DNA of 64,000 nucleotides from the NCBI RefSeq assembly GCF_030758295.1, contig NZ_CP132335.1:2642412-2706411 (forward strand). The letters are read 5' to 3'. This document shows, in pieces, positions 6,498-33,353 of the stretch. Position 1 is the stretch's first letter; the number at the start of each line of letters is the position of its first letter. Position numbers and translations under genes: made by a program. Origin of the DNA: Pararhizobium sp. IMCC21322 (GTDB taxonomy: Bacteria; Pseudomonadota; Alphaproteobacteria; Rhizobiales; GCA-2746425). Under the pieces are notes generated by a model, which saw only the letters and a program-made list of their open reading frames with translations, did no database searches and was not told the DNA's origin.

Positions 6498-6533
6498 GGG
6501 TCTGGACTCAATCTCCAAATTGGGTTCAGACCC
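6498..6533. repeat. 15-bp near-perfect hairpin
   Basis: GGGTCTGGACTCAAT (6498-6512) and ATTGGGTTCAGACCC (6519-6533) pair at 13 of 15 positions around the loop CTCCAA. It follows the DUF1344 gene by about 60 bases. On the minus strand it begins inside the stop of the short helix-turn-helix-like fragment at 6526-6606. It may be a terminator-type hairpin or a terminal inverted repeat left by a mobile element. No T-run is present. Confidence 0.6.
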
Positions 6534-10100: not shown

Positions 10101-10130
10101 GATGATCGTTTCTGGTTCAGACGGCCGAAA

Positions 10131-11024: not shown

Positions 11025-11059
11025 ATTTCCTCAAAAGTTACGGTTCAGATTCATGTGAT

Positions 11060-12929: not shown

Positions 12930-12933
12930 AAGC

Positions 12934-13923: not shown

Positions 13924-13924
13924 A

Positions 13925-15166: not shown

Positions 15167-15167
15167 A

Positions 15168-16436
15168 TCAGTTTCCCGCTGGTTCAAAGTTGCAGGCGAC
15201 GGATCCGTCGAACTGACAAGGTTCATCAAAGCCGGTGAAAGCGACCCGATCAACGAACATCAAAACCGGCTCATCCGGCGCTGAGAAGGGCCCCATCCAA
15301 TCGACAAATGTGTCTGATCCCCACAGGCTGAAATAAATCTTCTGAAGATTGCTCGGCAGCACATCTGTGTCACTGGTCTGGTGAACCAGATTGCCGTTGA
15401 CATACCAATGCATCTGCCCTGGTTCCCAGACAAATGCGTAATTATTGAAGCCACTGTCCGACGTGTCTTCAAGGGGGATGAAGGCTTCATTGCCACCACT
15501 GCCACCCACATAATAGTTGAGTTGAACTTTGCTTGTGTCCTTCAGGAGGAATTCAAAATCGATCTCATCGTGGGGTTTTTTATGCACTGGTCCGATATAG
15601 GTGAAAAATGCAGCATTGAGGCCAGAGCCACTGCCGGTTTTTATCCGAGCTTCATAGACGCCGTATCCAAACCGTGCGTAGGTCTGCACCTCGCCACATG
15701 CATAGTTTCGATCAGCGGTCGTCTGCTGTTTGAATTGCAGCACAAGCATGTCATCTGAAATGCCGGTTGCGCCCTTTGACCAGGTGCAGTTTTGGTGGTC
15801 GCCATTGGCCCATCCGTCAGAGATGTACCAGCGGATTGAATCCAGAGAGTTGAAGTTATCGACAAATGATACGCCGCTGTCCAAATCGTCCGCGTAGGAT
15901 GGTTCAGACGAAAGTGTTGTCAGAGCAGTTGCGGTGACTGACGCAATCAAAAAGGCCGCCAGAACCTGCTTGACCTTCTTGTTCTCCGGAATTGGCTTTG
16001 GATTTTGGCCTGAAGCATTGGGAGCCGCAGGTGCCGGCTCGCTGACCACAGCAGCCTCACTTGAGGTGACATCAGCGACCATCTTCAGGGCCAGTTTCTC
16101 AAGCTCAACAATTCCTTTGTGCTGCTCCGCAAGCGTCAAAATCCTGGATTGACAAGCCAGCAATGTCTCTGTCAGTTCGTCCGATCGTTTGTTGGAATTT
16201 TCAGGAGCATCGCCACTATCCATTGTGTCCTGCAGGAAGGCTGCCGATGTTGCTGCGTTCCTGGAACGGGATTGCAACCCAGAAAGCTCTGTTTGAATGG
16301 CTTTGCTGCAGTTACGAATATTGTGGACCAAATGCTCAAATCTTTTGGAATCCGTTGCTGCATCCCGCGCGCTGGACCGAACATAAAATTCGTTGTGATC
16401 CGGATTGGTTCGATTTTTGATGTAATTGAAAACCAT
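15168..16436 (-). CDS. exoK: ExoK-like GH16 endo-glucanase with a long N-terminal extension
   Basis: This is a 422-residue protein. The C-terminal 240 residues form a family 16 glycoside hydrolase with the catalytic segment HDEIDFEFL near residue 288 (the two Glu act as nucleophile and acid/base), plus WYVNGNLVHQ and IYFSLWGSD. In S. meliloti ExoK cleaves nascent succinoglycan and is a short secreted protein. Here the hydrophobic segment VLAAFLIASVTATALTTLS, ending in a signal-peptidase-like SYA, sits at about 157-180. It follows about 155 polar, helical residues that look cytoplasmic. The enzyme may therefore be membrane-anchored or processed internally. No Met lies close before the hydrophobic segment (the nearest is near residue 118), so a simple wrong-start explanation is not convincing. 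Confidence 0.85.
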   Translation of the reverse strand: MVFNYIKNRTNPDHNEFYVRSSARDAATDSKRFEHLVHNIRNCSKAIQTELSGLQSRSRNAATSAAFLQDTMDSGDAPENSNKRSDELTETLLACQSRILTLAEQHKGIVELEKLALKMVADVTSSEAAVVSEPAPAAPNASGQNPKPIPENKKVKQVLAAFLIASVTATALTTLSSEPSYADDLDSGVSFVDNFNSLDSIRWYISDGWANGDHQNCTWSKGATGISDDMLVLQFKQQTTADRNYACGEVQTYARFGYGVYEARIKTGSGSGLNAAFFTYIGPVHKKPHDEIDFEFLLKDTSKVQLNYYVGGSGGNEAFIPLEDTSDSGFNNYAFVWEPGQMHWYVNGNLVHQTSDTDVLPSNLQKIYFSLWGSDTFVDWMGPFSAPDEPVLMFVDRVAFTGFDEPCQFDGSVACNFEPAGN

Positions 16437-16508: not shown

Positions 16509-18740
16509 TCATTGATTGGCTCCAATTCCATTGACCGGAAACAAAACCTGTTGGTCTCGATAAATATTCGCCGGTGGTTTTTGGCTTTTTGTCAGGCCAA
16601 TTTTACCAATCTTGTCAAACGCAATACCGCTAAACACAGCGAGAAAAATAGACGGGTTTGAACAGGCAAATTTCAGGGCTTGCCACGCCGTTTTGTCTTT
16701 CTTCAAATCGAGAAATTCGCGAAGTGCGAATTTGCTGTGGATATGCCGTTCGTGGCGCATCAACATTGAGCGGTTGGCAGCAGAGAGAGCATGGTCATCC
16801 AGCATGGAACGGTCGGCTTTCACCAATGCTTCCAGATCCGAAGTCTGATGTTTTGCGCTGAGTGAATTGGAACGGATTATTGCGGCATATCCCAAAGATG
16901 GTGAGATTTTGAAGCGCGCCTGTTTCAGGAGCGCTCTTGAATACAGCTCATAATCCTCACCCAGGCGAAGATTGCGCTGGTATCGGATGCCATGCGCCTG
17001 GAGAAATCCCCGTTTCATGACGGGTTTGAGAAATCCCAGTTCGCCGCGCATCAGGCCGCGTTTGGAAATATTCCCGGCAATAAATTCAGCGAAACTCAGC
17101 GTCGTTTGTTTGGGGCTGTTGCCCAATAATTCCGTGGTTTCAAACGTGCCAATCGCCTCTTCGTCCAGAAACACGATGTTATCGCCGATAAAATCCCAAT
17201 CATCGTCTTCAATCAGCGGTTTGAAACGATCCTTCAGGAAAAAATCATCTGCATCCAGGACGGCAATCAGTGGAGCATGTGAATTGTCTATGGCGATGTT
17301 TCTGGCTTCGGCAGGACCAACATTTTGCGACAATTCAATCAATTTCAGGCGATTGGTTCCGTCTTCTGCAAGCCGCGCTGTGACGACTGTTTGGTCCGTC
17401 GAAGCATCATCAACAACGATGACTTCTGACACCTCCGCCTGATTGAGTGCTGAGGTCACAGCCCGAGCAATTGAATCTTCAGCATTGAAGGCAGCAATTA
17501 TCACGCAAACAGATTTTGCATTGCGACTATGCTGCTGGCCCTCAGCCAGGGTTTCGACTGGGTTTTCATGCCCATGGGAGTTTGCCATATTCTGAACCTC
17601 AGCCGACTGTCGTGGTTTTGCTGTGCGTTTTTCCTGAGTGATGCGACGGCTGACATCTGCCGATATCGCCCATAAAGATTCACTGGCGAATCTGGCCGGA
17701 GAGCGTTCGCAGAGTTCCCACAACACCTGTCGGCGCTTGGGCCAGTTTGACGCGTTTTTTTCGGGCAGAAGCAGAAGGTTTTTAAGAGATGCATCACTGA
17801 CCGAAGCCAGGATTTCTGGTTCGGGCGTTTTTGTCATTGGATGATCAACATTCAGGACAGCTTTTGCAGAACGAAGGCCGAGCGAGAGAATGGCTGACAA
17901 ACCCTGCTGCTTGCTGAAAGCCTGTATGGCCGTGATATCCTGTGTCCGCAAATTACAAAGGCTCGCATGGACATCAGCAATATGGCCTCCGCACGGCTCA
18001 CGATTGAACATCGCTTTGGCAATGCTGATCGACGACATAAGCAAAAAGTCATCCGGGTGCATGAACGGCACCTTGATCCCGGCAACATCGACAAACTGTT
18101 TCCGCTTTATAAATTCACCGGTATCAGTTGGTTGCGGTGAACCGGGTTGCTGAATCCTGTAGTGAAGATCAATTGCCGGGGACCCTGGCAGGTGGGGCTC
18201 AAAATGTTGCTCGCCTAGAAAATTGACCCACCAACTTGAATCCGTTCTGTCGACCACGGCAAACCCGGCCGTTCCCAGCACGTCTCTGGCCCGCTTAAAG
18301 TCATTGCCGTGTACGAGCAAATCAACATCACCGGCGGGTTTTACAAAATAGCTGCCATAGAGGATTTTCTGCTGAATTACGCCCTTGAAGACAATGAACT
18401 CAACATCAGCCTTCACCAGCGCATTCGAAATTTTCGAGATATGGGCAAGACAGGCCGCATTCAGAAGTGCTGTCCGTTTGCGATAGATATTCAACCATAG
18501 ATCGAATTTCTGATCGTCCGAACGTCTATGTTCACGCGAAGATCCCAAGAAATTTGCGACCTTGTTGGTGCGCAGAAATTTCTGAAATGCATCATGTCTC
18601 GTAATGTCATGCAGCCGATCCTGAGGGTCCGTCATTCCCGCAAATACATATTTGCCGAGGGAATTTGCGACCGTATGGAAAGTGTCTGTAACGTTTGCGA
18701 GTGGACCGAATTGGGTAGGGGGTTCGGCAATCTGTATCAT
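16509..18740 (-). CDS. Nucleotidyltransferase-family / GT2 glycosyltransferase fusion, lasso-cluster associated
   Basis: This 743-residue protein has two recognisable parts. Residues of about 95-390 match the nucleotidyltransferase group found in lasso-peptide clusters (NTP_transf_5 type): FIVFKGVIQQKILYGS, then PAGDVDLLVHGNDF with the metal-binding DxD. After a polar linker (about 385-412), a family 2 glycosyltransferase follows: VCVIIAAFNAEDSIARAV, VIVVDDASTDQT, LDADDFFLKDR and LRLGEDYELYSRALL. It is closely related to ExoO. ATG 18740 is preferred over TTG 18746. It points away from the lasso operon across a shared 486-base AT-rich region and runs towards exoK. It may tailor the lasso peptide, act in EPS synthesis, or link the two. 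The fusion itself is directly visible, and its job is inferred. Confidence 0.8.
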   Translation of the reverse strand: MIQIAEPPTQFGPLANVTDTFHTVANSLGKYVFAGMTDPQDRLHDITRHDAFQKFLRTNKVANFLGSSREHRRSDDQKFDLWLNIYRKRTALLNAACLAHISKISNALVKADVEFIVFKGVIQQKILYGSYFVKPAGDVDLLVHGNDFKRARDVLGTAGFAVVDRTDSSWWVNFLGEQHFEPHLPGSPAIDLHYRIQQPGSPQPTDTGEFIKRKQFVDVAGIKVPFMHPDDFLLMSSISIAKAMFNREPCGGHIADVHASLCNLRTQDITAIQAFSKQQGLSAILSLGLRSAKAVLNVDHPMTKTPEPEILASVSDASLKNLLLLPEKNASNWPKRRQVLWELCERSPARFASESLWAISADVSRRITQEKRTAKPRQSAEVQNMANSHGHENPVETLAEGQQHSRNAKSVCVIIAAFNAEDSIARAVTSALNQAEVSEVIVVDDASTDQTVVTARLAEDGTNRLKLIELSQNVGPAEARNIAIDNSHAPLIAVLDADDFFLKDRFKPLIEDDDWDFIGDNIVFLDEEAIGTFETTELLGNSPKQTTLSFAEFIAGNISKRGLMRGELGFLKPVMKRGFLQAHGIRYQRNLRLGEDYELYSRALLKQARFKISPSLGYAAIIRSNSLSAKHQTSDLEALVKADRSMLDDHALSAANRSMLMRHERHIHSKFALREFLDLKKDKTAWQALKFACSNPSIFLAVFSGIAFDKIGKIGLTKSQKPPANIYRDQQVLFPVNGIGANQ

Positions 18741-19226
18741 AAACAAGCCCTGTTGCTTTCGCTATCAGTCTTGGTAGCCGTTGCCTCCCTCTTAAAGTAA
18801 ATATCAAAATTCAGCGCTCGTCAAACATCATTTGATGACGTTTTTACTGCGAAAAACGATCAAAATTGTGACTGAATATTGTTCTGAATTGAAATGCGGG
18901 ATCAGCGGAAAAATATAAATGCCTGTAATCATTCAATAAAAATAATCGGGCAATGAGAACACAATTTAGGCAATATTCAAAAATGCATAAAAAATAGGCA
19001 TAATATAACAGGAATTTTTCTGCATAAGTAAACATGATGAAAATTTAAGCGGTATAGAGAAAAATCAATGAAATTAGAGGTCTGTGGAATTTTTAATTTA
19101 ATGTGATAAGTATTCGGTCATTTTTTCTTGACATGCAATATGACGCTGGTCTTACTCAGCGAGTGCGGGATGGTTCTGCACGACCAAAAACCGTAAAGTT
19201 CCGACGTGGAGTAAAGGGAGATTTTG
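18741..19226. promoter_or_regulatory. AT-rich divergent control region of the lasso operon and the NTase-GT gene
   Basis: This stretch is strikingly AT-rich compared with the surrounding genes and has no credible gene. It holds TAGGCAATATT (18967-18977), ATAAAAAATAGGCA (18987-19000) and CCTGTAATC (18922-18930). All three words recur in the exoX-exoY intergenic region (25406-25424 and 25474-25482). AT-rich exo promoters in rhizobia are commonly bound by MucR/Ros-type regulators, and such control is plausible here. Confidence 0.6.
19128..19156 (+). promoter_or_regulatory. Possible lasso operon promoter
   Basis: TTGACA at 19128-19133 is a perfect -35 hexamer. Seventeen bases later lies CTTACT (19151-19156), a weak -10. 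It would place transcription start about 65 bases before the precursor ATG. Confidence 0.35.
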
Positions 19227-19385
19227 ATGAAAACAGCTTCGAAAAGTTTGAGCCCGAAATACGAGGCGCCGTGTCTCACGGTTCACGGTTCAATCGAACA
19301 GATAACCCAGGGTGCTTCTACCGGATCGGCACTTGATGCTGCGTTTCCGGTTGGAACGACATTTGGCGATCTGACCTTCTCTTAA
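19227..19385 (+). CDS. Lasso peptide precursor (A)
   Basis: This is a 52-residue peptide gene with a good ribosome-binding site (AAAGGGAG, six bases before ATG). The leader is MKTASKSLSPKY, then EAPCLTVHGSIEQITQ. It carries the canonical lasso leader pattern YxxPxLxxxGxxxxxT at Tyr12, Pro15, Leu17, Gly21 and Thr27, with Thr27 at the penultimate leader position. Cleavage after Gln28 gives a 24-residue core starting G-A-S-T-G-S-A-L-D, so a nine-residue macrolactam between Gly1 and Asp9 is predicted. The 15-residue tail contains Phe12, Phe18 and Phe23 as possible steric plugs and ends DLTFS. The C-terminal Ser is the residue that lasso kinases phosphorylate. It is followed in the same direction by B1, B2, C, kinase and exporter genes. 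The product is probably new, judged only by not matching any core I remember. Confidence 0.93.
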   Translation: MKTASKSLSPKYEAPCLTVHGSIEQITQGASTGSALDAAFPVGTTFGDLTFS

Positions 19386-19403
19386 GAAGGCGGACGTTCA
19401 AAG

Positions 19404-19435
19404 AAAGGCTGCGCGGCACATTGCTGGGCAGCTTT
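19404..19435 (+). terminator. Attenuator-like hairpin between precursor and B1 genes
   Basis: AAAGGCTGCGCGGCA and TGCTGGGCAGCTTT form an imperfect stem around CAT, starting 18 bases after the precursor stop. There is no long T-run. Such a hairpin could protect or partly terminate the transcript, so that more precursor than enzyme is made. This is a common arrangement in peptide clusters. Confidence 0.4.
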
Positions 19436-19537
19436 GGGGCAGAGTTGGTTTGTATGACCAGCCTGTTCGTGTTTTGTCAGGCGACAAAATTCGTGGGCAA
19501 TTGCCGGGTTGGGCGGAAATTGTCAGGTGTGTCAGCA

Positions 19538-19843
19538 ATGAATGGTTCTTCACCCATGACAGAAGATCGTGACCCAATATCCCAACGTCTAAAAGCGTCC
19601 TCGGAAGTTGTCGCTTGCGAGTTTGGCGAAGGCATAGCGCTGCTTCATTTGAAAAGTAATGTCTATTATAGCCTCAATTCTGTTGGCGCAGACATCTGGG
19701 ATTTTATACAAAAGCCTTCATCAAGGGACGATATTTATAAGTATATAGAGGAAAAATTTCAGATTCAGAAAGAAGTATGTCGTGCAGACGTAGAAAAAAT
19801 TCTGTCAGAATTTAAGAAGTACAATTTGTTGTCTCCATCATGA
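19538..19843 (+). CDS. Lasso peptide B1 protein (PqqD-like leader-binding)
   Basis: This protein of about 101 residues has a PqqD-type fold: VACEFGEGIALLHLKSNVYY, SLNSVGADIWDFIQ, then a helical C-terminus with VEKILSEFKKYNLL. B1/RRE proteins bind the leader's YxxPxLxxxG motif and deliver the precursor to the protease. ATG 19538 was chosen from conservation of the start of the domain. ATG 19556 is also possible, and both have weak ribosome-binding sites. Its TGA overlaps the ATG of the B2 gene (ATGA). The neighbours make a role in PQQ synthesis unlikely. Confidence 0.9.
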   Translation: MNGSSPMTEDRDPISQRLKASSEVVACEFGEGIALLHLKSNVYYSLNSVGADIWDFIQKPSSRDDIYKYIEEKFQIQKEVCRADVEKILSEFKKYNLLSPS

Positions 19844-20259
19844 CAAAGGTAATGCGATTTTTTCGCCTAAGTATTTCAGAGAAAATCTTCCTCGCCCATT
19901 GCATTATTGTGTTGTGCGTCATTCGTCTTGCTCTGTCACTGAAGTCAGCTTCTTTCATCATGCGGAAGATATCGGCAATTCATGTCACTGAAGACGGCGA
20001 TCAAAAGTCGTCAAGCATGGTCGCATGGGGGGTCGGTGCGTGCTCCAATTATGTGCCCGGTGCAACGTGCCTGACACAGGCTCTGGCCGGGCAGTATTTG
20101 ATGGCCAGACACAACTACCGTTCAATCGTGAGAATTGGGATAGAGCGGGATGACCACAAAAACATAAAGGCGCATGCGTGGCTGCTAAGCGGCGGGTTTG
20201 TTGTGTTGGGTGGAAAGGCATCTGACATGCCACTTTATGCAACCATGGTAGATTTGTAG
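19840..20259 (+). CDS. Lasso peptide B2 protein (transglutaminase-fold leader peptidase)
   Basis: This 139-residue protein has the catalytic Cys77 in VPGATCLTQALAGQYLMARH and His112 in IKAHAWLLSGG, the arrangement of the transglutaminase-like cysteine protease that removes the lasso leader. A hydrophobic segment (FLAHCIIVLCVIRLALSL, about 17-34) precedes the catalytic part, as in many B2 proteins. It overlaps B1 by four bases and lies 11 bases before the cyclase gene. With B1 it forms the split form of the McjB function. Confidence 0.92.
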   Translation: MTKVMRFFRLSISEKIFLAHCIIVLCVIRLALSLKSASFIMRKISAIHVTEDGDQKSSSMVAWGVGACSNYVPGATCLTQALAGQYLMARHNYRSIVRIGIERDDHKNIKAHAWLLSGGFVVLGGKASDMPLYATMVDL

Positions 20260-20270
20260 GCGATGATACC

Positions 20271-22196
20271 ATGAGCGCTATTGCAGGCATATTCAGCAGA
20301 GCAATGAGCGGAGAGCCTACCGAGGCCTGTCTGCACAAAATGCTATCGGCGATGCAAGCCAGATTTTCTGATGGCCAGAAGGTTTTGACGATTGGTCCGG
20401 TGACGCTCGGGCTCGGTTGGACGAATACTTCAGGTGAGCGTAAAGGCGGGCCGTTTTCATCTCATGGTAAAGCCCTTTCGATCGTCGGCGATATCAGATT
20501 GGACAATCGTGAAGCACTCATGTCCATCTTGGGAAATTGCGCTGGCGGAATAACCGACAGCGAGTTGGTGCTGAAGGCCTATCGAAGATGGGGTGAAGGC
20601 ATGCCGAGCCATCTGGAGGGCGATTTCGCTTTCGTGATATGGGACGATTCCAGACAAGCGGTCTTCTGCGCACGGGATCGTTTTGGTATCAAGCCGTTCT
20701 ATTTTCGCCTGACCGAAATACAATTCTCAGTTGCATCCAGTATTTCGGCACTTGTTGAAATGCAGGGCAGTGGATTGGATGTCGACGAGGATCGCATTGC
20801 CGACTTTCTGGTTGGCCTTCCCAGCGAGACCGGCAAGACGGCATTTCAACAGATCAGACGTTTGCCGCCCGGGGAATATATGACGGTCACCCGTGACGAT
20901 GTTCGCACCGCCGGATATTGGGTGATCGAACCAAAGCAGCCCGTTGCACAGGCCGAATTGCCAGACGCATTCGCGGAGCTTTTCACGCGGTCTGTAGCGA
21001 ACAGGATGCGCGGAACCGATCAAGTGGGAGTTATGCTCTCGGGAGGACTGGACTCATCATCCATTGCCTGTGTTGCTCGTAATCTGAGGTCAATGCAAGG
21101 GCAAGGCGCACTTGACACCTACTCACTTGTATTCGAGCGGGGAAGCGGTGCCGACGAAATCCATTCTATCCAGTCTGTGCTGAATACAGGTGGCTTTAAG
21201 CCCCATTTTCTGGGCCCGGAACTGCCGGAGCCTTTTGCTCAACATGAGAGTGTGCTTCGGGAACAATCAGAACTGTTTCTGGCGCCCGGGCTGTCAAACA
21301 TCCGTTCAATTTATGCACAGGCCAAGGCCAACGGGCAACGCGTGCTTCTGGATGGTCACGGCGGTGATGAAGTTGTGTCCCACGGTTATGGACGGCTTCG
21401 GGAATTGACTGATCAGGGCAACTGGCTGAGATTGTGGCGGGAGGCCTGTGGTGCAGCAAAAACCCTGAATGTCAGCCCTGCTACGATATGTCTGCAATTG
21501 CTGACAAGCCGGTTTGCCGCCTCAGGCAATCTCTTCAACTCGTTCAGCACATTTTCTCAATCCAGACTGCCTTATCGCGTGAGAGCAAAACTCTCCAGAA
21601 AACGGACCGAATGGCGTCAACTCGTGAATGAGGATCTGGTACATCGTAGCAATCTGATCGCCAGATATTCAGCAGCGCGAGACACCAAAGCTGGAGATGC
21701 CAGTGAGCAGGATGAGCATATGCACATTCTCGCCAATCCTCTCATTCCTCACGCATTTGAGGTGTTGGACCGCGCAGCGGGTGCCAATTGTATCGAACCG
21801 CGATATCCCTTCTGGGACAAGGAATTGTTGTTGTTTTGTCTTGGGCTTCCGGCCAGTCAAAAACTGGGCAATGGCTGGACCCGATTAATCCTCCGACAGG
21901 CGATGGAAGACATCCTGCCGACTGCAGTGCAATGGCGCCGCGACAAGGCTGATTTCACATCAAACACTGCGGTCAGCATGCTGAGCCATAATCAAGCGCT
22001 GATGAGCAGCATTATGGGCGCCGAAGCCGATAGATTAGCGCCCTACGTGAACATGGATTTCCTGCGAAAGGCTTTTCAACGCCTGTCGCAACAAGGTGAC
22101 CGTGCCCAGCTGGAGGACATCCTGCATGTATGGCGATCTGTATGGCTGTCACTCTGGTTGAAGCAGATGGAACGGGGCACAAGCATTGAGTATTGA
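20271..22196 (+). CDS. Lasso peptide macrolactam synthetase (C), asparagine-synthetase-like
   Basis: This 641-residue protein resembles class B asparagine synthetase. The N-terminal glutaminase-like domain starts MSAIAGIFSR, so the nucleophilic Cys2 of true asparagine synthetases is replaced by Ser. The synthetase domain has the ATP-binding loop LSGGLDSSS at about residues 256-264 and the later DGHGGDE. In lasso clusters this enzyme adenylates the ring-forming Asp or Glu (here Asp9) and joins it to the N-terminal amine of the core peptide. The loss of Cys2 fits an enzyme that does not use glutamine as ammonia donor. It overlaps the kinase gene by 11 bases. Confidence 0.92.
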   Translation: MSAIAGIFSRAMSGEPTEACLHKMLSAMQARFSDGQKVLTIGPVTLGLGWTNTSGERKGGPFSSHGKALSIVGDIRLDNREALMSILGNCAGGITDSELVLKAYRRWGEGMPSHLEGDFAFVIWDDSRQAVFCARDRFGIKPFYFRLTEIQFSVASSISALVEMQGSGLDVDEDRIADFLVGLPSETGKTAFQQIRRLPPGEYMTVTRDDVRTAGYWVIEPKQPVAQAELPDAFAELFTRSVANRMRGTDQVGVMLSGGLDSSSIACVARNLRSMQGQGALDTYSLVFERGSGADEIHSIQSVLNTGGFKPHFLGPELPEPFAQHESVLREQSELFLAPGLSNIRSIYAQAKANGQRVLLDGHGGDEVVSHGYGRLRELTDQGNWLRLWREACGAAKTLNVSPATICLQLLTSRFAASGNLFNSFSTFSQSRLPYRVRAKLSRKRTEWRQLVNEDLVHRSNLIARYSAARDTKAGDASEQDEHMHILANPLIPHAFEVLDRAAGANCIEPRYPFWDKELLLFCLGLPASQKLGNGWTRLILRQAMEDILPTAVQWRRDKADFTSNTAVSMLSHNQALMSSIMGAEADRLAPYVNMDFLRKAFQRLSQQGDRAQLEDILHVWRSVWLSLWLKQMERGTSIEY

Positions 22197-23142
22197 TAGA
22201 CACCTCTCCCATGCGACGGCTACGCAGGATCACGCGGCAGGAACCGCCCGGTTTTACACAGCCTATGGTCTGGTTTTTGCCTCCGCCCTTGTTCTGCCTG
22301 AGTTGATCGAAGTTGAGCCTTGTGCCGCTGATGTATGGATCAACATAGGGAACCCCGAAGAACAGGAAGCCCCAGGTGGAGACACGACCTGGTATCGGTT
22401 TGAAGAGGATAGTGCAGTCCTTCACTGGGATGCTGTCGGCACATTCAAGGTCCGTTACGGAAATGAAATCGTCGTTGAACAGGCAGAGAATGTGGCAGAC
22501 GATCTTGTCGCCTTTCCGCTGCTAGGGCCGGTTCTGGCTGTGCTGCTGCATCAGCGTGGACTGCTTATCCTGCACGCCAGTTCCATTAGCATCAAAGGCC
22601 GTGGCCTGTGCCTTTTGGGAGACAAGGGCGCGGGCAAGTCGACAACTGCGGCGTCATTGGTCGCGGCGGGACATATGTTGTTGACTGATGATATCGTTGC
22701 AATCGAGTGCGATGCAGACGGCGATTTTTACGTTCTCGCCGGCTTTCCCCAAATCAAGTTAGCCGCAGATGCCGGTGCCCGAATAGGTCTGGCAGATGCC
22801 AGAATTCTTGCGCAAGCACATCCTTCCATTGACAAAAACCGACACCGCCTGATGTCAGGGTTTTCCGACCACCGCGTAAAACTGGAAAAGCTGTTTATTC
22901 TGGTCCGCGGCAACGAGATAGGTGTCACGAGCCTATCCGACAAGCAAAGTCTCGATGCGCTGATCCGCTACTCATACATGTCCAGGTTCGGGACTTCCGC
23001 AATGGCCGGAGCCTCTGTTGCGGTCCATTTGATGCAATGCGCGAAAATTGCCGGGGCCTTGAAAGTCAATGTCTTGACCGTCCCTGACAATCTGGGCCGG
23101 CTCGGTGAGTTGGTGGACGTTCTTGAAAGGCAGGCGGCCTGA
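22186..23142 (+). CDS. HPr-kinase-like lasso peptide kinase
   Basis: This 318-residue protein has an HPr kinase/phosphorylase C-terminal core: LLILHASSISIKGRGLCLLG, Walker A GDKGAGKST at about 145-153 and MLLTDDIVAIE. The N-terminal part is divergent. The likely start is TTG 22186, inside the end of the cyclase gene, because no ATG or GTG occurs soon after. Homologues in paeninodin-type clusters phosphorylate the C-terminal Ser of the precursor, and the precursor here ends in Ser. It shares ATGA coupling with the ABC exporter gene. There is no HPr or PTS gene near, so a role in carbon control is unlikely. Confidence 0.87.
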   Translation: MSIDRHLSHATATQDHAAGTARFYTAYGLVFASALVLPELIEVEPCAADVWINIGNPEEQEAPGGDTTWYRFEEDSAVLHWDAVGTFKVRYGNEIVVEQAENVADDLVAFPLLGPVLAVLLHQRGLLILHASSISIKGRGLCLLGDKGAGKSTTAASLVAAGHMLLTDDIVAIECDADGDFYVLAGFPQIKLAADAGARIGLADARILAQAHPSIDKNRHRLMSGFSDHRVKLEKLFILVRGNEIGVTSLSDKQSLDALIRYSYMSRFGTSAMAGASVAVHLMQCAKIAGALKVNVLTVPDNLGRLGELVDVLERQAA

Positions 23143-24983
23143 TGAACATTGCGCCATCAAACCTTCCGGAGTCAGCGGCCTCTCTGGGTATGGGCAGAAA
23201 GCAAATAGCGACACAAATTCGGCTTCTGATGGCGCATATAGGGCGCATTTCAGGAGGCCGGTTTTGGATGGCGCTTATTCTGCTGCTTTTTGGCAGCCTG
23301 ACCGAGGGCATTTCCATATTTCTGTTGATCCCGCTGCTTCATATTATGAATCAGACCGATGGCGCATTCGTGATGCAACTCGGCCAGATAGACGCATTGT
23401 CCCGTTGGTTACCCGACATCGCTGTTTCGCTTCCGGTAATACTCGCATTGCTCATCGGGCTGGTGTCCCTTCAAGCCTTCTTTGTCAGGTGGAAGTCGAT
23501 TTATCTGGCCCGGATGCTCATCGATTTTCTCAATCAGACGCGTATCGAATTGTTCGACGCGATTGCGCGCGCACGCTGGGAGAAAGTGGCGCAGAGCCGA
23601 AAATCGGAACTTGAGCATGCTCTGACCGCAGATATTGAAAAAATCCAGGCATGTGGTTTTTTCCTGCTCAATATATGCCAAACCCTTGTTATTATGTCGG
23701 TTTACGCCGGTCTATGCTTCCTGATTTCAGTTCCTACCACCTTGATCGTGCTGGCTGTGGGCGCAATCCTCTATGCTGGTTTGTCGCCTTTTCGCGTGAA
23801 TGCCGCAAAGTTTGGCGTGCTGACCACACGAAACAGAAAGGAACAATATCGCACCATTTCGGATTTCCTGTCCGGCATCAAAATGGCAAAAATGTTGAAC
23901 GGCGAGCGGTTCTATTTTGACCTTCTGGATCGAAATTTGGCCCGGATAACAAAAGACAACACATCCTATGTAAATCAAAGCACCATTGGCACCGCCGCTT
24001 TCCAGGTTGCCAGTGCAATCGGGTTAGCTGCTTTCGCTTATATCTCTCTGGTGGTGTTCAGGGTTTCCATGGTGGAGTTTCTGGTTCTTCTGGTGATTTT
24101 CGTCCGTGTCACCCCCAGATTGTTAAGCCTTCACACCCAGGTGCAGCAATTTCTTGTCAGCCTGCCGGCCTATGGTTCGGTTTTGAAATTGACCGGAGAG
24201 TTTGCAGCGGAACGCGAACTTGCAAAGGAAACCCGTGTGCCAGTTTCGTTCAAGCTGGAAAAAGGGATCACCCTGAAGCATGTCAGCTATTGCCATGAGA
24301 TGGCCGGGCGTAATTTTGCCCTGCGTGACATCTCACTGGAAATACCAGCTGGCAAAGTGACGGCGCTTATCGGGCCATCGGGGGCGGGAAAAAGCACCTT
24401 GGCGGATATCATTGCCGGTTTGATTGAAGTGACGTCAGGAGCAATGTCCGTAGATGGCATGTTGATTGGCTCGGACAATCAAAGGGCATGGCGCTCTCAC
24501 GTCGCCATCGTTCATCAGGACGTCTTTCTGCTGCATGACACCATCAGAGCCAATTTACTCTTTTCCAAGCCTGATGCGAATGACGCTGAAATTTCAAAGG
24601 CCCTTGATATCGCGCAAGCGCTGGAATTTACAAAACATCTGCCTCTCGGCCTGGACACAATTGTTGGAGAAAGAGGTGGGCTGCTGTCCGGGGGAGAACG
24701 CCAAAGGATCGCCATAGCTTGTGCTGTTTTGAGAAAACCCAAACTGCTCGTGCTTGATGAAGCGACCAGCGCACTGGATTGGGTCAATCAGGCGCTGATT
24801 GCTGAAACCATCGAAAAATTACGCGGTGAAACCACCATTCTGACAATCGACCACGGGGACGCGATGATTGCTCATGCCGATCAAGTCATTGCGATGGAGG
24901 AGGGCAGGCTTGTCGATTCTGGAAAATATTCAAAATTGCGAACAAAGCGTGAGCCTCGTTTATCAAAAGTGATTGCAGGTTAA
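23142..24983 (+). CDS. ABC exporter (lasso D), fused membrane and ATPase domains
   Basis: This 613-residue half-transporter has a six-helix exporter domain (about residues 45-330) and one nucleotide-binding domain. The latter has Walker A GPSGAGKST at about 410, signature LSGGERQRIA at about 515 and Walker B LLVLDEATSALD at about 535. The H-loop is TIDHGD. There is no C39 peptidase domain, consistent with leader removal by B2. It probably exports the mature lasso peptide and may provide self-protection. It is the last gene of the operon and is followed within 10 bases by an intrinsic terminator. Confidence 0.93.
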   Translation: MNIAPSNLPESAASLGMGRKQIATQIRLLMAHIGRISGGRFWMALILLLFGSLTEGISIFLLIPLLHIMNQTDGAFVMQLGQIDALSRWLPDIAVSLPVILALLIGLVSLQAFFVRWKSIYLARMLIDFLNQTRIELFDAIARARWEKVAQSRKSELEHALTADIEKIQACGFFLLNICQTLVIMSVYAGLCFLISVPTTLIVLAVGAILYAGLSPFRVNAAKFGVLTTRNRKEQYRTISDFLSGIKMAKMLNGERFYFDLLDRNLARITKDNTSYVNQSTIGTAAFQVASAIGLAAFAYISLVVFRVSMVEFLVLLVIFVRVTPRLLSLHTQVQQFLVSLPAYGSVLKLTGEFAAERELAKETRVPVSFKLEKGITLKHVSYCHEMAGRNFALRDISLEIPAGKVTALIGPSGAGKSTLADIIAGLIEVTSGAMSVDGMLIGSDNQRAWRSHVAIVHQDVFLLHDTIRANLLFSKPDANDAEISKALDIAQALEFTKHLPLGLDTIVGERGGLLSGGERQRIAIACAVLRKPKLLVLDEATSALDWVNQALIAETIEKLRGETTILTIDHGDAMIAHADQVIAMEEGRLVDSGKYSKLRTKREPRLSKVIAG

Positions 24984-24990
24984 GGACGAT

Positions 24991-25026
24991 GAGTGTCCCA
25001 ACAGGAATTCAAGACACTCTTTTTTT
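24991..25026 (+). terminator. Rho-independent terminator of the lasso operon
   Basis: GAGTGTC (24991-24997) and GACACTC (25013-25019) form a perfect 7-bp stem followed at once by seven T (25020-25026). It begins eight bases after the exporter stop and overlaps the last codons and stop of the convergent exoX gene. Confidence 0.9.
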
Positions 25027-25263
25027 CAACGGTTCGGTCTTGCTGTATGTTTTGGCGTCAGTAGGCGCTTTTTCATCCACTTTTTGTTTCTGTTGTGCGC
25101 GTACCTTCATAAGGATGAAACAAAAATATCCTATCTGGAGGATGACGAGCACAATGACTGCTCTGATCGCCACGGTCACAAAATCTGCGCCATCATATAA
25201 TGACCACATTGTCACGATGATGGTGGTGCAAACCAGACCCAATAAGAATTTTGGCAAAGTCAT
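25009..25263 (-). CDS. exoX: ExoX-like exopolysaccharide production repressor
   Basis: This 84-residue protein begins MTLPKFLLGLVCTTIIVTMW and has two hydrophobic segments (FLLGLVCTTIIVTMW and AIRAVIVLVILQIGYFCFIL). A charged tail follows (KVRAQQKQKVDEKAP). Size, topology and location opposite exoY match ExoX/Psi, a small membrane protein that lowers EPS output post-transcriptionally, with the ExoY sugar transferase as presumed target. ATG 25263 is preferred because TTGAGGT precedes it. Longer in-frame starts up to 25365 lack a ribosome-binding site. The 3' end coincides with the lasso operon terminator. Confidence 0.8.
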   Translation of the reverse strand: MTLPKFLLGLVCTTIIVTMWSLYDGADFVTVAIRAVIVLVILQIGYFCFILMKVRAQQKQKVDEKAPTDAKTYSKTEPLKKRVS

Positions 25264-25547
25264 TGCTACCTCAAGTTGCTGATATAAATTACCACAAACC
25301 GGCCACAAATGATAGAGGTCAGGGTTTAAGAATTGGCGAATGCTGAACGTGTCTGAATTGGGCATTTAGTTGAGTATAAAAATTGTGCAATCTCGCAAAA
25401 ATAAGATAAAAAATAGGCAATATTGTCATATTTTGTAAGCGGAAACATAAGTGTTTGATGAATTTTCAAATTTCCTGTAATCGCACTTGTGATTGATAAT
25501 TTTATATGTATTCTACTTTTGGGAGGCTGTGATAAACCAAGGAGCCA
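25264..25547. promoter_or_regulatory. AT-rich divergent exoX-exoY control region
   Basis: This 284-base divergent intergenic region is AT-rich. It contains ATAAAAAATAGGCAATATT (25406-25424) and CCTGTAATC (25474-25482), both also found in the lasso promoter region. The exoY ribosome-binding site AAGGAG lies just before its start. Both exo genes are probably controlled from here. Confidence 0.6.
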
Positions 25548-26246
25548 ATGATGGCTGTTTTCGAAAAATCCTCCCCTTGGCGCATACAAGCTCGCCAGGT
25601 TCGACAAACACAAAACGAAAATCTGCCCCGAATATCCAGAAGTTCCTTGAAGCGTATTTTTGATGTTGTCGGCGCCTCAATCGGGTTGGTCGTCCTGTCT
25701 CCATTGATGCTCATGTTAGCCGCGCTCGTTAAGTTCACTGATGGCGGTTCTGTATTTTACGGGCATCGTCGTATCGGGCGAAACGGTTCAACATTCAAAT
25801 GCCTGAAATTTAGGACAATGGCTGCGAACAGCGAAGAATTGTTGGAAATTTACCTGTCTGAAAACGAATCTGCTCGCGTTGAGTGGGACCGCGACAGAAA
25901 ACTCAAAAGTGACCCCCGGATCACATCGATTGGCGTGGTTCTCAGAAACCTGAGTCTGGACGAACTTCCGCAACTCTTCAACATCCTACTCGGCGAAATG
26001 AGCATGGTGGGTCCAAGGCCGGTGGTCAGCGACGAGCTGGAAAAATATGGGGCTGCAGCACAGTATTATCTCAGCACCCGGCCAGGACTCACAGGACTTT
26101 GGCAAATCAGCGGTCGCAACGATGTCAGTTATGGGCGTCGTGTGGAGCTCGATCAGATTTACGTGAAAAATTGGTCATTCCAGTCAGATCTCGTGATCAT
26201 TATCAAAACGATCCCTGTCGTATGTCTGGCTAAGGGCAGCTACTGA
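25548..26246 (+). CDS. exoY: ExoY-like undecaprenyl-phosphate galactosephosphotransferase
   Basis: This 232-residue initiating sugar transferase loads galactose-1-phosphate onto undecaprenyl phosphate to begin each EPS repeat. It shows the bacterial sugar-transferase pattern: LKRIFDVVGASIGLVVLSPL, the single N-terminal membrane helix, YGHRRIGRNGSTFKCLKFRT, LSLDELPQLFNILLGEMSMV, GPRP and TGLWQISGRNDVSY. Two adjacent ATG codons are possible starts. The second (25551) has the better spacing from GGAG. It is the first gene of the plus-strand EPS arm. Confidence 0.93.
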   Translation: MMAVFEKSSPWRIQARQVRQTQNENLPRISRSSLKRIFDVVGASIGLVVLSPLMLMLAALVKFTDGGSVFYGHRRIGRNGSTFKCLKFRTMAANSEELLEIYLSENESARVEWDRDRKLKSDPRITSIGVVLRNLSLDELPQLFNILLGEMSMVGPRPVVSDELEKYGAAAQYYLSTRPGLTGLWQISGRNDVSYGRRVELDQIYVKNWSFQSDLVIIIKTIPVVCLAKGSY

Positions 26247-26262
26247 CCAAATTCCGTACTGA

Positions 26263-26297
26263 CGACCTGATCTGATCTGCTTTTCTAACTCAGGTCG
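26263..26297. repeat. 8-bp perfect inverted repeat between exoY and exoF
   Basis: CGACCTGA (26263-26270) is mirrored by TCAGGTCG (26290-26297) with a 19-base loop, 16 bases after the exoY stop. It could be an intercistronic processing hairpin or a weak terminator. No T-run follows. Confidence 0.5.
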
Positions 26298-26346
26298 ATG
26301 ACGTTTGACGTCTTTGCACGGTCGCGTAACCTTCGGGAGTAAGCAT

Positions 26347-27597
26347 GTGAACACCAGATATGACGTAACGAATCTGAATATTTTTTCCATTGCCGCGTTG
26401 GTGTTGGTCTGGTTCTCATCACTCAGTTATGCCCAGGCTGAGTACCAGCTGGGTGTTGAAGACAAGCTGATGATCCGGGTCTATGAGTGGCGCAGCGTTG
26501 AAGGCGAAGTTCGCGAGTGGCCAGCCCTGACGGGCGAATATGTCGTTGGCGCGTCCGGCAAATTAACATTGCCGTTTGTGGGCTCTGTCCCTGCCATTGG
26601 CAAGACCACCGAGGAAGTTGCCGGCACAATTGGCAGCAAGCTGAAAAATGTACTGGGTCTGGTTGATAAGGCGGAGGCTTCGGTTGAAGTCATCGAACAC
26701 CGACCCTTCTTCATATCGGGCGAGGTGAAAGCATCCGGGCGATATCCCTATTCGCCCGGCCTTACGGTACAGCGTGCAATAGCGATTGCCGGGGGTGGTT
26801 CCCAACTGGCCACAACGGGATCCCGCGCTTCCCGCGATGCCATAAGTGCGACCGGAAACATTGGTATCCTGCGCGATCAGCTGGTGCGCCTGCTTGTTCA
26901 GCGCGCCCGCGTCAATGCCGAAACCAACAAGACAGATATTGTTGTGCCGGTGATCAGAGGCGCTCCTTCAAATTTCATCTCATCCCTGGTGGAGGATGAA
27001 ACGGTGATCATGGTCTCGCGCCAACGCAAGATTGATCAGGAACTCTCCGCGCTGGACTCGCTGCAATCCCTGCTCGAACGGGAAATCGATACGCTTCGAC
27101 AAAAGATGGTGTCGATTGAATCTCAGATGGAGAGCGTCAGCAAGGAACGGAAAGGCATGGAGGAACTTGCCAAAAAGGGGTTGGTAAACAACACCAGATT
27201 ATTCCAGGCGGAAAGAAACAGTGTTGATGTCGAGGGCAAGGCGCTTGATCTGACCACCGCAATTCTGCGTGCCCAGCAGGAAATTGGCAAAGCCAATCAA
27301 TCAAGAATTTCATTCCTCTCCGGAAGAGAAGCTGAATTGGCGCTTGAGCGCCAGAAGCTTGATTCTCAGATCGGCGAGATCGAACGCAAGATCGATATGC
27401 AGCAAGGTTTGCTGGCGGAAGCCGCGGCGTTTTCATCGACGACCGATGCAGCGCTTGGAGATGAGGGTCTGGTTCTGACCTACAAAATCACAAGAGATAT
27501 GGAGGGCGGGTTGAAGGAACTGACTGTGGACAAAAACGCGCCAGTCCAACCCGGCGATGTTGTGGTGGTCGAACTGTCAATTCCCGTCGGCAACTAG
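26347..27597 (+). CDS. exoF: ExoF-like polysaccharide export protein (Wza-type/SLBB)
   Basis: This 416-residue protein starts at GTG 26347 after GGGAG. A signal-peptide-like segment follows (IFSIAALVLVWFSSLSYAQA). The mature part opens with the Poly_export domain (YQLGVEDKLMIRVYEW and GEYVVGASGKLTLPFVGSV), then a soluble-ligand-binding beta domain (FFISGEVKASGRYPYSPGLT). The second half, about residues 225-370, is a long coiled coil. In succinoglycan production ExoF works with ExoQ and ExoP in polymerisation and export across the periplasm. Length is close to S. meliloti ExoF. Confidence 0.9.
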   Translation: MNTRYDVTNLNIFSIAALVLVWFSSLSYAQAEYQLGVEDKLMIRVYEWRSVEGEVREWPALTGEYVVGASGKLTLPFVGSVPAIGKTTEEVAGTIGSKLKNVLGLVDKAEASVEVIEHRPFFISGEVKASGRYPYSPGLTVQRAIAIAGGGSQLATTGSRASRDAISATGNIGILRDQLVRLLVQRARVNAETNKTDIVVPVIRGAPSNFISSLVEDETVIMVSRQRKIDQELSALDSLQSLLEREIDTLRQKMVSIESQMESVSKERKGMEELAKKGLVNNTRLFQAERNSVDVEGKALDLTTAILRAQQEIGKANQSRISFLSGREAELALERQKLDSQIGEIERKIDMQQGLLAEAAAFSSTTDAALGDEGLVLTYKITRDMEGGLKELTVDKNAPVQPGDVVVVELSIPVGN

Positions 27598-27641
27598 GGT
27601 CTGCCACCTCAAAGTTCTTTAGCGAGAATTGTACGAACACC

Positions 27642-28919
27642 ATGAAAATCAGAAGATCACTGTTTGTCGATCAGGAATGCAATTCGCTTTACGCTGCAAC
27701 TGCGATTGCCGTGTCGATATTCGTGTTCGCCTATTCATCCCGCTTTGGTCAGGTATCTGTCCTGCTTTATTACGGGCTTTGGCTGCCGCTGATTATGGTC
27801 GACCACAGGCGAGTTCTCAGCACAGTTCAGACGTTTCCAATCATCTACCTGTTTGCTGCATTGGCCGTGTTGTCTGTGTTCTGGTCACAGGCCCCCGGGG
27901 TCACTTTGCGGGGCGGCATACAAATGCTGTCCCATGTCATATGCGCGACATTTGCCGCCAGCGTGGTGAGCAATCGCTCACTTTCAATTGGTGTGCTTTG
28001 GGGCACGACGCTGGTGTTGTTGTACTCGCTCTTTTTTGGCCGCTACAGCTATAATCCCATTGATGGTTCATACACATTTGTCGGGTTGTTCTCGTCAAAA
28101 AACCAACTCGGATTTTTCGCTTCTCTGGGCCTGGTTTTCGGGTTTTTCAATCTGTTTTATGTCGTAACAGGCAATGCGCAGAAACTATTGTGTTTGGGTA
28201 TAATTCTTCTCAGCGCTTATATACTTGCGATTTCTTCATCTGCGACTTCCATTGTCTCTGTATTCATCACTCTTAGTTTCCTGTTCGGGTTGATGAGTCT
28301 GTCAGTTTTCACACCAAACACCCAAAAAGTTATATTTTTTTCCAGTCTGGTTTTGGCTGTTTGTGGATTTTATTTGGCTGTTGAACTGAATGTTTTCGAA
28401 TTTATCCTGGCTTTGTTTGGAAAAGATACAACCTTAACGGGTCGTACCTATCTCTGGTCAGAGGGCTTTGCAGCCGCGACAGAAGCACCCTGGTTTGGGT
28501 GGGGTTATCTCGCCTATTGGGTGCAGGGATTTTCTGAAGCGGAGCGTCTATGGGCCGAATTCTACATTGAATCCCGCACAGGCTTTCATTTCCACAACAC
28601 CTATATCGAAGCGCTGGTCGAGCTTGGTTATGTGGGGGCCGTTCTCTTGATCTGGCTTTTGATTTCCACGCTTGTGATGGCCTTTTCCAAACTGATGAAA
28701 GGCCATTTCCAGCCAGAAGCTATGCTCACATGCAGCCTGTTGGTGCTGTTGACCATACGCTCCGTGTCTGAAGTCGACATTCTGACGCCCTACACCGTCG
28801 GCTCCTTCATTTTCTATTTTCTGGCAACGAAGTCGCGCGTGGCGCAGCGCCGCAATGCAGGGTCTTATCTGGTAAAGCCGCGCTATGCCGGACCGAAGGT
28901 GAGGGCGCTGGGTGGATAA
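27642..28919 (+). CDS. exoQ: ExoQ-like EPS polymerase (Wzy/O-antigen ligase superfamily)
   Basis: This 425-residue polytopic inner-membrane protein has around ten hydrophobic segments and the large periplasmic loop typical of Wzy/WaaL proteins, including GRTYLWSEGFAAATEAPWFG and FHFHNTYIEALVELGYVGAV. The latter is the conserved HN-xx-LE region. ExoQ joins lipid-linked octasaccharides into high-molecular-weight polymer. It lies between exoF and exoT. The stop overlaps the GTG start of exoT by eight bases. Confidence 0.9.
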   Translation: MKIRRSLFVDQECNSLYAATAIAVSIFVFAYSSRFGQVSVLLYYGLWLPLIMVDHRRVLSTVQTFPIIYLFAALAVLSVFWSQAPGVTLRGGIQMLSHVICATFAASVVSNRSLSIGVLWGTTLVLLYSLFFGRYSYNPIDGSYTFVGLFSSKNQLGFFASLGLVFGFFNLFYVVTGNAQKLLCLGIILLSAYILAISSSATSIVSVFITLSFLFGLMSLSVFTPNTQKVIFFSSLVLAVCGFYLAVELNVFEFILALFGKDTTLTGRTYLWSEGFAAATEAPWFGWGYLAYWVQGFSEAERLWAEFYIESRTGFHFHNTYIEALVELGYVGAVLLIWLLISTLVMAFSKLMKGHFQPEAMLTCSLLVLLTIRSVSEVDILTPYTVGSFIFYFLATKSRVAQRRNAGSYLVKPRYAGPKVRALGG

Positions 28920-31322: not shown

Positions 31323-31349
31323 TTCATAAAATTACCAGGAGTGACAAGC

Positions 31350-32372: not shown

Positions 32373-32415
32373 GCAATCTGTTTGTACTTGTGCCCAGCAC
32401 TCGGGCGGTTTTCCC

Positions 32416-33243: not shown

Positions 33244-33353
33244 AGCGTTATTGCGCAGGAAGATTTTGCACCGAAAAAATCCCGTCAAAACGCATCACAG
33301 AAACAGACTTAATCGGCATACGAATTTTCATACGCAGCCTGAAGGTAAAAATT

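What the first reader, a model, noticed from the sequence alone, without database searches (positions are those of the whole stretch)
19227..24983. Complete lasso-peptide gene cluster hidden inside an exopolysaccharide locus
Six consecutive same-strand genes encode precursor, B1 (PqqD-like), B2 (Cys77/His112), C (asparagine-synthetase-like), kinase and ABC exporter, overlapping or closely spaced downstream of B1 and ending in an intrinsic terminator. The precursor gene is only 52 codons and easily missed. Lasso clusters of Alphaproteobacteria commonly encode an isopeptidase and TonB receptor. This one has neither and instead has an exporter plus kinase. It sits between the two arms of a succinoglycan-type locus.
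Basis: partly seen in the sequence, partly recalled or inferred. Interest (0 to 1): 0.93.

Follow-up and report, generated by a model that had tools for sequence, protein, structure and literature searches.

The report
Lasso peptide cluster in exopolysaccharide locus
A complete set of genes for a small knotted peptide, probably decorated with phosphate and sugar at its tail, sits inside the genes for the cell's slime coat, and the same pairing recurs in Mesorhizobium, a genus of legume symbionts, so the peptide probably acts at the cell surface rather than as a classic antibiotic.

Summary
Window 19227-24983 carries a lasso peptide cluster: precursor, B1, B2, cyclase, HPr-like kinase and ABC exporter, with key residues intact and purifying selection on the precursor. 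It is of the known kinase type (paeninodin-like), which accounts for the missing isopeptidase and TonB receptor. The EPS setting is not incidental. All 38 Mesorhizobium loci in a capped cyclase scan carry the same cassette at the same place beside exoU, with the two enzymes as separate neighbours. Clusters in three further lineages also adjoin EPS genes. In a seven-gene EPS tree, seven loci with the cassette split from seven without (100/99), although exoY alone disagrees. All 43 precursors read have a 24-residue core with invariant Gly1, Asp9 and Ser24. Best reading: a C-terminally phosphorylated, probably hexosylated lasso peptide made with a particular EPS type. The chemistry and the EPS-related role are inferred. 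Co-localisation with capsule loci is already in print for Bacilli (2026); the exoU-linked alphaproteobacterial form and the fusion were not seen in my searches.

The parts
19227..19385 (+). Lasso precursor A, 52 aa: leader with YxxPxLxxxGxxxxxT motif, predicted 24-aa core GASTGSALDAAFPVGTTFGDLTFS (Gly1-Asp9 ring, C-terminal Ser24)
   Evidence: NF033528 32.2 bits, cut-off 33; dN/dS 0.093; 22 distinct cores, all 24 aa; 0 hits in 60 shuffles
19386..19537 (+). Intergenic stretch A-B1 with a stem-loop just after the precursor; possible attenuator or mRNA-processing element
   Evidence: 19386-19530, z -4.14; 5 relatives, z -3.20, -2.02, -1.70, -3.84, -1.78
19538..19843 (+). B1, PqqD-like leader-binding (RRE) protein
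   Evidence: PF05402; TbiB1 5v1u, E 6.7e-7
19840..20259 (+). B2, leader peptidase, Cys77 and His112
   Evidence: NF033537 over cut-off; Cys77, His112 in 78 of 78 rows
20271..22196 (+). C, lasso macrolactam cyclase (asparagine-synthetase-like)
   Evidence: NF033535, 600.3 bits, cut-off 525
22186..23142 (+). K, HPr-kinase-like lasso kinase with His130, Lys151, Asp168, Asp169
   Evidence: PF07475; the four residues in 77 of 77 rows
23142..24983 (+). D, MsbA/HepA-like ABC exporter
   Evidence: best NCBIfam models all under their cut-offs
16509..18746 (-). Divergent 745-aa fusion: N-terminal NTP_transf_5 nucleotidyltransferase (about 1-320) + C-terminal GT2 of ExoU type (about 400-745); part of the cassette
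   Evidence: PF14907 88.9 bits, PF00535 89.6; same 2 of 5 genomes as the cyclase; separate neighbouring ORFs in 38 of 38 Mesorhizobium loci; D140, D142 invariant in 18 rows; dN/dS 0.213
24991..25026 (+). Terminator-like element: GAGTGTC / GACACTC stem, 15-nt loop, 7 T; overlaps the 3' end of the opposing exoX-like gene
   Evidence: read by eye; z -0.06: weak
7722..16436 (-). Left EPS arm: exoP (TIGR01005 over cut-off), a gene at 10131-11024 not scanned (UTP-glucose pyrophosphorylase-like by eye), three GT2 genes, a weak GT4-like gene, exoK (NF052392 over cut-off)
25009..30432 (.). Right EPS arm: exoX-like (-, weak, under cut-offs), exoY-like sugar-phosphate transferase, exoF-like, Wzy_C polymerase, Polysacc_synt_3 flippase
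   Evidence: gene names partly by position and homology, recalled

Best explanation
This is a paeninodin-like lasso peptide cluster built into one lineage of exopolysaccharide (EPS) locus. B1 binds the leader and B2 cuts after Thr-Gln. C closes a Gly1-Asp9 ring in a 24-residue core. [quoted passage not shown] The nucleotidyltransferase half of the neighbouring fusion then adds hexose to that phosphate, as reported for PsmN in pseudomycoidin, and D exports the product. The ExoU-like half still serves EPS synthesis; in this genus the two activities share one polypeptide, so both run together at the membrane. The mature phospho-(glyco)lasso peptide most likely works in or with the EPS matrix, as a cell-surface factor or signal, rather than as a classic narrow-spectrum antibiotic. 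Shown here: the genes, conserved key residues, constrained precursor, conserved position, and co-segregation of cassette and EPS lineage. Inferred: every chemical step, export, and the EPS-related role.
For: Family hits and conserved residues. Core of 24 aa with invariant Gly1, Asp9, Phe12, Thr16, Thr22-Phe23-Ser24 in 22 distinct sequences from 43 precursors; a C-terminal Ser beside a kinase is the reported substrate rule. Order and strands exoU-like, NT | B1 B2 C K D | exoX-like, exoY, exoF in 38 of 38 Mesorhizobium loci kept by a capped cyclase scan, with exoK in 37. Seven lasso-less exo loci of that layout have exoU-like and exoY about 1.1-1.3 kb apart with no cassette, and those genomes have no lasso B2 anywhere (7 of 7). 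EPS genes also adjoin the clusters of G331, Pseudaestuariivita and Caulobacter sp. S45. In 397 genomes of the order all 8 with the cyclase over cut-off are among the 17 with exoK over cut-off. Seven-gene EPS tree splits 14 loci by cassette, 100/99, and rejects one clade of all Mesorhizobium, p-AU 0.005. NT-ExoU fusion intact in two species, dN/dS 0.213.
Against: No product, expression or mutant data. The 38 Mesorhizobium loci are one lineage and were picked by their cyclase; in an even sample 6 of 8 genomes of that genus code have the cyclase over cut-off. Independent EPS associations are four or five at most. Single-gene EPS trees are mostly unresolved, and exoY groups lasso and lasso-less Mesorhizobium together (84/84), against the combined split; exoK and exoF agree with it (83/84 and 83/94) and gt13925 pairs the window with a lasso Mesorhizobium weakly (84/84). 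Long window branch and odd composition are flagged. NTP_transf_5 is common without this cyclase (71 of 397 genomes) and PsmN's activity is not established in vitro. The fusion could be a neutral stop-codon loss between neighbours. Many relatives have the EPS genes without the cassette, so the peptide is not needed to make EPS. Outside the order the class sample gave no cyclase over cut-off (at most 3 candidates scored per genome).
Confidence: 0.62

Rival explanations
1. An ordinary antimicrobial lasso cluster that landed in the EPS locus and is merely carried along with it; export gives self-protection and the EPS genes are irrelevant.
For: Exporter D is present, and antibacterial action is common among lasso peptides (general knowledge). 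The block is accessory: 3 of 5 genomes of the genus lack cyclase, NTP_transf_5 and exoK alike, and lasso B2 too.
Against: The core is strongly conserved between families, which would be unusual for an arms-race peptide (general knowledge, not tested here). EPS loci of different layouts are involved (G331 against Mesorhizobium). The NT gene is fused to an EPS-type glycosyltransferase. EPS genes together split by cassette.
Confidence: 0.2
2. The peptide is a regulator or signal for EPS production, so the cluster sits beside exoX/exoY for shared control, without chemical contact between peptide and polysaccharide. (Not exclusive of the best explanation.)
For: Cassette lies next to the exoX-like gene and shares the divergent control region with the NT-exoU gene; upstream region partly conserved with G003.
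Against: No receptor or two-component system recognised beside the cassette among the genes scanned; the nearest regulator seen is a LysR gene at 35538. Kinase and NT point to chemical decoration. The exoX match is weak and under cut-off.
Confidence: 0.3
3. The NTP_transf_5 domain serves EPS synthesis, not the peptide; its link with lasso genes is indirect and the fusion is neutral. (Concerns one step of the best explanation.)
For: NTP_transf_5 over cut-off occurs in 71 of 397 genomes, 8 of which have this cyclase over cut-off; it is fused to an EPS-type GT here.
Against: In lasso-less exo loci of the same layout no NT hit is seen in 7 of 7; 5 of those 7 genomes have no NTP_transf_5 match at all and 2 have one on another contig. 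NT lies beside the cassette in G331, Pseudaestuariivita and Caulobacter, where the EPS layout differs. Nucleotidyltransferases go with HprK-type kinases in pseudomycoidin and LPP clusters.
Confidence: 0.25

Closest known systems
Paeninodin (PadeK) and pseudomycoidin (PsmK, PsmN) clusters of Firmicutes
   Same: B1/B2/C machinery with HprK-like kinase acting on a C-terminal Ser, transporter, and in pseudomycoidin a nucleotidyltransferase (passages)
   Different: Here a 24-aa GxxxxxxxD..F...T.....TFS core family in Proteobacteria; NT fused to an ExoU-like GT, whereas fusion to B2 is reported in Firmicutes. Their sequences were not compared here
Sphingobium yanoikuyae SyanA/SyanK cluster
   Same: Proteobacterial kinase-type lasso cluster with C-terminal Ser
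Paeninodin-like and LPP clusters in capsular polysaccharide loci of Bacilli (PMC13381572)
   Same: Kinase, NTP transferase, MsbA-like transporter, embedded in polysaccharide loci; role unknown, biofilm only speculated (passages)
   Different: Bacillota, extra RRE and signal peptidase; no succinoglycan-type exo locus and no NT-ExoU fusion in the passages read
NCBIfam lasso_cyano / lass_lactam_cya (NF033528, NF033535)
   Same: Cyclase over cut-off; precursor 0.8 bit under cut-off; two Nostoc relatives also end in TFS
   Different: In the two Nostoc loci the precursor lies after C; NT is hit in 13 of 38 non-alphaproteobacterial loci, mostly downstream of K and D
Rhizobial succinoglycan-type exo locus
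   Same: exoP...exoK, exoU-like, exoX-like, exoY, exoF, exoQ order (gene names partly recalled)
   Different: No lasso cassette between exoU-like and exoY, and several kb between exoK and exoU-like where the cassette loci have about 1 kb or less

Membership tests
Lasso peptide biosynthetic cluster | Cyclase C of the lasso type | tested here: met
   NF033535 600.3 bits, cut-off 525
Lasso peptide biosynthetic cluster | B2 leader peptidase with Cys-His | tested here: met
   NF033537 over cut-off; Cys77, His112 invariant in 78 of 78 rows
Lasso peptide biosynthetic cluster | B1/RRE protein | tested here: met
   PF05402 over cut-off; TbiB1 match; but the lasso-specific NF033536 gives 50.5 bits, under its cut-off of 80
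Lasso peptide biosynthetic cluster | Precursor with Y..P.L...G leader, Thr at -2, acceptor Asp/Glu at 7-9 (definition recalled) | tested here: met
   curated precursor models narrowly under cut-off
Lasso peptide biosynthetic cluster | Threaded, macrolactam product | not testable with these tools
   no mass or NMR data
Kinase-type (paeninodin-like) lasso cluster | HprK-like kinase with His-Lys-Asp-Asp | tested here: met
   PF07475 over cut-off; H130, K151, D168, D169 in 77 of 77 rows; motif from PMC9266682, matched by order without PadeK's sequence
Kinase-type (paeninodin-like) lasso cluster | C-terminal Ser in the core | tested here: met
   43 of 43 precursors
Kinase-type (paeninodin-like) lasso cluster | Phosphorylated product | not testable with these tools
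   needs LC-MS
Phosphoglycosylated lasso (pseudomycoidin type) | PsmN-type nucleotidyltransferase with the cluster | tested here: inconclusive
Phosphoglycosylated lasso (pseudomycoidin type) | Hexose on the phosphate | not testable with these tools
   needs LC-MS of NT deletion
Isopeptidase/TonB lasso clusters of Alphaproteobacteria | Adjacent isopeptidase and TonB receptor | tested here: not met
   none among the genes scanned between 7.7 and 34.2 kb (10131-11024 not scanned); rest of the genome not searched for them

The most novel reading that the evidence does not exclude
The lasso peptide becomes part of the exopolysaccharide: the kinase and the NT-ExoU enzyme build a phosphodiester or glycosyl-phosphate bridge between Ser24 of the peptide and the part of the EPS unit that ExoU extends, so the cell displays threaded peptides on its slime. 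In Mesorhizobium this would put a lasso peptide on the polymer whose truncation in exoU mutants is perceived through the legume receptor EPR3.
Probability: 0.1. Interest if true: 0.93.

Novelty: new variant of a known kind. Interest (0 to 1): 0.58.

Why it matters
The role of paeninodin-like lasso peptides is stated to be unknown, and their place in capsule loci of Bacilli has been noted but not tested (PMC13381572, passages). Here similar machinery is tied to an exoU-like EPS gene. In Mesorhizobium loti an exoU mutant makes truncated EPS and forms few, ineffective nodules (PMC5748678, passages). Deleting a 50-codon gene in a tractable Mesorhizobium that carries the cassette would test the EPS role directly. 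It also raises a control question for existing M. loti exoU work, if the strain used has the cassette; two loci named M. loti do (L055, L057), the studied strain I could not check.

Tried and rejected
Chance ORF: rejected. Asparagine-synthetase or XrtA-type amidotransferase of EPS loci instead of a lasso cyclase: rejected, the lasso model scores 600 bits against 145 for the XrtA model.

Recent arrival in the window genome only: rejected, G003 has the block at 87-90% DNA identity and Mesorhizobium has the cassette at the same place.

Empty site inside the genus: led nowhere. The left flank gene 6911-7687 is itself only in the 2 lasso genomes and the right flank gene has several paralogues.

A control of lasso-like cyclase hits without the TFS core: 16 loci, 0 with exoK, exoF or exoP and 3 with an exoY-like hit. 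It is weak: 11 of the 16 show neither B1 nor B2 and may not be lasso clusters, and two contexts are short (12 and 5.9 kb). Cyanobacterial and other loci: exoP-like hits in 14 of 38, no control made, so not used.

Precursors were found by pattern in only 3 of those 38 non-alphaproteobacterial loci (L080, L082, L084). The order-level Fisher p of 1.7e-12 ignores kinship; by genus (counted by hand) it is 2 of 2 against 7 of 141, p 0.002. One search scored at most 2 candidates per genome, so its misses are not proof of absence; for the 13 comparison genomes without cassette I repeated the search with all candidates scored: no lasso B2 match and no cyclase over cut-off in 13 of 13, while G331 has B2 over cut-off and the cyclase under it. 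L077 has the precursor but its 4.5-kb contig is too short to test context.

The combined tree used 14 of the 20 loci (dropped: G331, G201, G304, G368, L078, L050) and seven EPS proteins of my choice; its test groups were named before that tree but after the single-gene trees.

Literature: 9 searches, seen as titles and abstract starts, some lists capped (20 of 41, 11 of 12, 12 of 183, 12 of 303). No listing shown named a lasso cluster in a rhizobial exo locus or an NT-ExoU fusion; the library holds open-licence papers only. PMC9266682, PMC8498205, PMC13381572, PMC5748678 and PMC9332814 were seen as passages; the rest as search listings.

Structure of the fusion: not obtained. No solved relative of the NT half or of B2 by sequence at E 0.01.
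Full report
What is there. Window 19227-24983 holds precursor A, B1, B2, C, an HPr-like kinase K and an ABC exporter D, all on the + strand. B1/B2 overlap by 4 nt, B2 and C are 11 nt apart, C/K overlap by 11 nt and K/D by one base. A stands 152 nt upstream of B1. The precursor falls narrowly short of its curated cut-offs. B1 matches the solved lasso protein TbiB1 (E 6.7e-7). The genome is one contig of 5.25 Mb with a single PF13471 (B2-type) match.

The precursor is real. Its leader pattern occurs once in the window and in none of 60 shuffles (pattern drawn up after seeing the sequence). Against the sister genome G003 it has 3 amino-acid differences, one in the core, with dN/dS 0.093 over 52 codons. 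Precursors were found in 41 of 41 alphaproteobacterial loci L041-L079, L088 and L092; with the window and G331 that makes 43. The 43 give 22 distinct cores, every one 24 residues long, with Gly1, Asp9, Phe12, Thr16, Thr22, Phe23 and Ser24 invariant. Caulobacter sp. S45 (L086), outside this count, has a diverged precursor, by eye also with an Asp at 9 and a C-terminal Ser.

The kind of lasso cluster. The kinase keeps His130, Lys151, Asp168 and Asp169 in 77 of 77 aligned rows, which fits the His-Lys-Asp-Asp motif reported as essential (PMC9266682; I matched the residues by order, without PadeK's sequence). Kinases of this type phosphorylate the C-terminal Ser of the precursor. So the exporter-plus-kinase make-up is that of paeninodin-like clusters, known in Firmicutes and Sphingobium, and not an oddity.

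The missed seventh gene. The divergent ORF 16509-18746 (745 aa) has NTP_transf_5 at its N-terminus and a GT2 glycosyltransferase at its C-terminus. In pseudomycoidin a gene annotated as nucleotidyltransferase, PsmN, is needed for one or two hexoses on the phospho-Ser; that PsmN is of the same Pfam family is recalled. In the genus, 2 of 5 genomes have the cyclase and the same 2 have NTP_transf_5. Residues D140 and D142, in the DxD position of nucleotidyltransferases (recalled), are invariant over 18 rows. The GT2 half is 47-51% identical to the GT2 nearest exoY in the seven lasso-less exo loci, the place of exoU; the name rests on position and homology, since NCBIfam gave no ExoU hit. In 38 of 38 Mesorhizobium loci the two are separate neighbouring ORFs; in 2 of 38 they are in one frame with a single stop between. 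The fusion is therefore most simply a joining of neighbours, kept under constraint in two species (dN/dS 0.213).

The EPS setting recurs. A capped scan of genome contigs with the cyclase alignment kept the best 80 of 452 loci. In 38 of 38 Mesorhizobium loci among them exoU-like, NT, B1, B2, C, K, D, exoX-like, exoY and exoF stand in the window's order and strands, with exoK in 37 (exoX matches are weak). Seven lasso-less exo loci of this layout (G247, G264, G294, G360, G322, G395, G186; the first two g62) have exoU-like and exoY 1.1-1.3 kb apart with no cassette, an exoX hit being seen in 2 of the 7. With all candidates scored, these genomes have no lasso B2 at all (7 of 7). G331, of another family, has its cluster between exoK/exoF and exoP in an EPS locus of different layout, and its relatives G201, G304 and G368 show neither cassette there nor B2 anywhere. 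Pseudaestuariivita rosea and Caulobacter sp. S45 also have EPS homologues within 10 kb. L077 cannot be judged. So all alphaproteobacterial loci of this kind that I read with enough context adjoin EPS genes: the window, G003, 38 Mesorhizobium, G331, L078 and L086, 43 of 43, but only four or five lineages.

Co-inheritance. Of 397 genomes of the order, 8 have the cyclase and 17 have exoK over cut-off, and all 8 are among the 17; by genus p is 0.002. One search scored at most two candidates per genome. In a tree of seven concatenated EPS proteins (2223 columns, 14 loci; three of the seven proteins missing for four of the five lasso Mesorhizobium) the seven lasso loci lie on one side of a branch with support 100/99, and one clade of all Mesorhizobium is rejected, p-AU 0.005. 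Against this, exoY alone groups all Mesorhizobium (84/84); exoK and exoF agree with the split (83/84, 83/94); the others do not decide. The tree is unrooted, the window branch is long and its composition unusual; in the exoF tree, with the f6 loci outside, the lasso loci would be the older side, so loss of the cassette is as open as gain. The fair reading is that cassette and EPS locus have moved or diverged largely as one unit, not that a single origin is proven.

How it probably works. B1/B2/C make a Gly1-Asp9 lasso, K phosphorylates Ser24, NT hexosylates the phosphate, D exports. Genes and residues are shown; the chemistry is inferred from characterised relatives. The hairpin after A (window z -4.14; five relatives -1.70 to -3.84) may keep precursor mRNA in excess; inference. 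The tight core conservation, the EPS co-segregation and the NT-ExoU fusion favour a surface or matrix role. A lasso peptide covalently attached to EPS is the boldest reading that nothing here excludes.

What is known. Popov et al. 2026 (PMC13381572, passages seen) report lasso clusters of the paeninodin-like kind, with kinase, NTP transferase and MsbA-like transporter, embedded in capsular polysaccharide loci of Bacilli, with joint up-regulation of an EPS-related gene, and leave the role open. So co-localisation with polysaccharide genes is in print for Bacillota. The alphaproteobacterial exo-locus form, its presence across Mesorhizobium beside exoU, the shared split of EPS lineage and cassette, and the NT-ExoU fusion were not seen in my nine searches of an open-licence library. 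I rate it a new variant of a known kind.

Noticed in passing
window 40961-51166: About 10 kb absent from the otherwise syntenic G003; it holds two sulfatases, a GntR/FCD regulator and a TctA transporter, so it looks like a catabolic insertion or a deletion in G003.
   Followed up: partly
window 30159-34151: Downstream EPS genes include a weak pyruvyl transferase, a GT2 and a Stf0 sulfotransferase: the EPS may be sulfated.
   Followed up: no
L143:10655-11695: A second NTP_transf_5 gene downstream of the lasso cassette in Mesorhizobium genome G137; further matches appear on the cassette's contig in G072, G107, G208 and G228.
   Followed up: no
L144:3214-3871: G231 has three neighbouring lasso-precursor-like ORFs of a different core type beside C, K, B1 and B2 homologues.
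   Followed up: no
L084:12053-13391: A Pyrinomonadaceae locus has two lasso precursors, one before and one after the kinase, ending TLS and AFS.
   Followed up: no
L137, exoK region 6146-6910: exoK of G331 shows one in-frame TGA in the family match, possibly a decayed gene.
   Followed up: no
window 6911-7687: A gene at the left edge of the EPS block (metallophosphatase-like by eye) is matched only in the two lasso genomes of the genus (2 of 5), so the accessory block may be larger than the EPS genes.
   Followed up: partly
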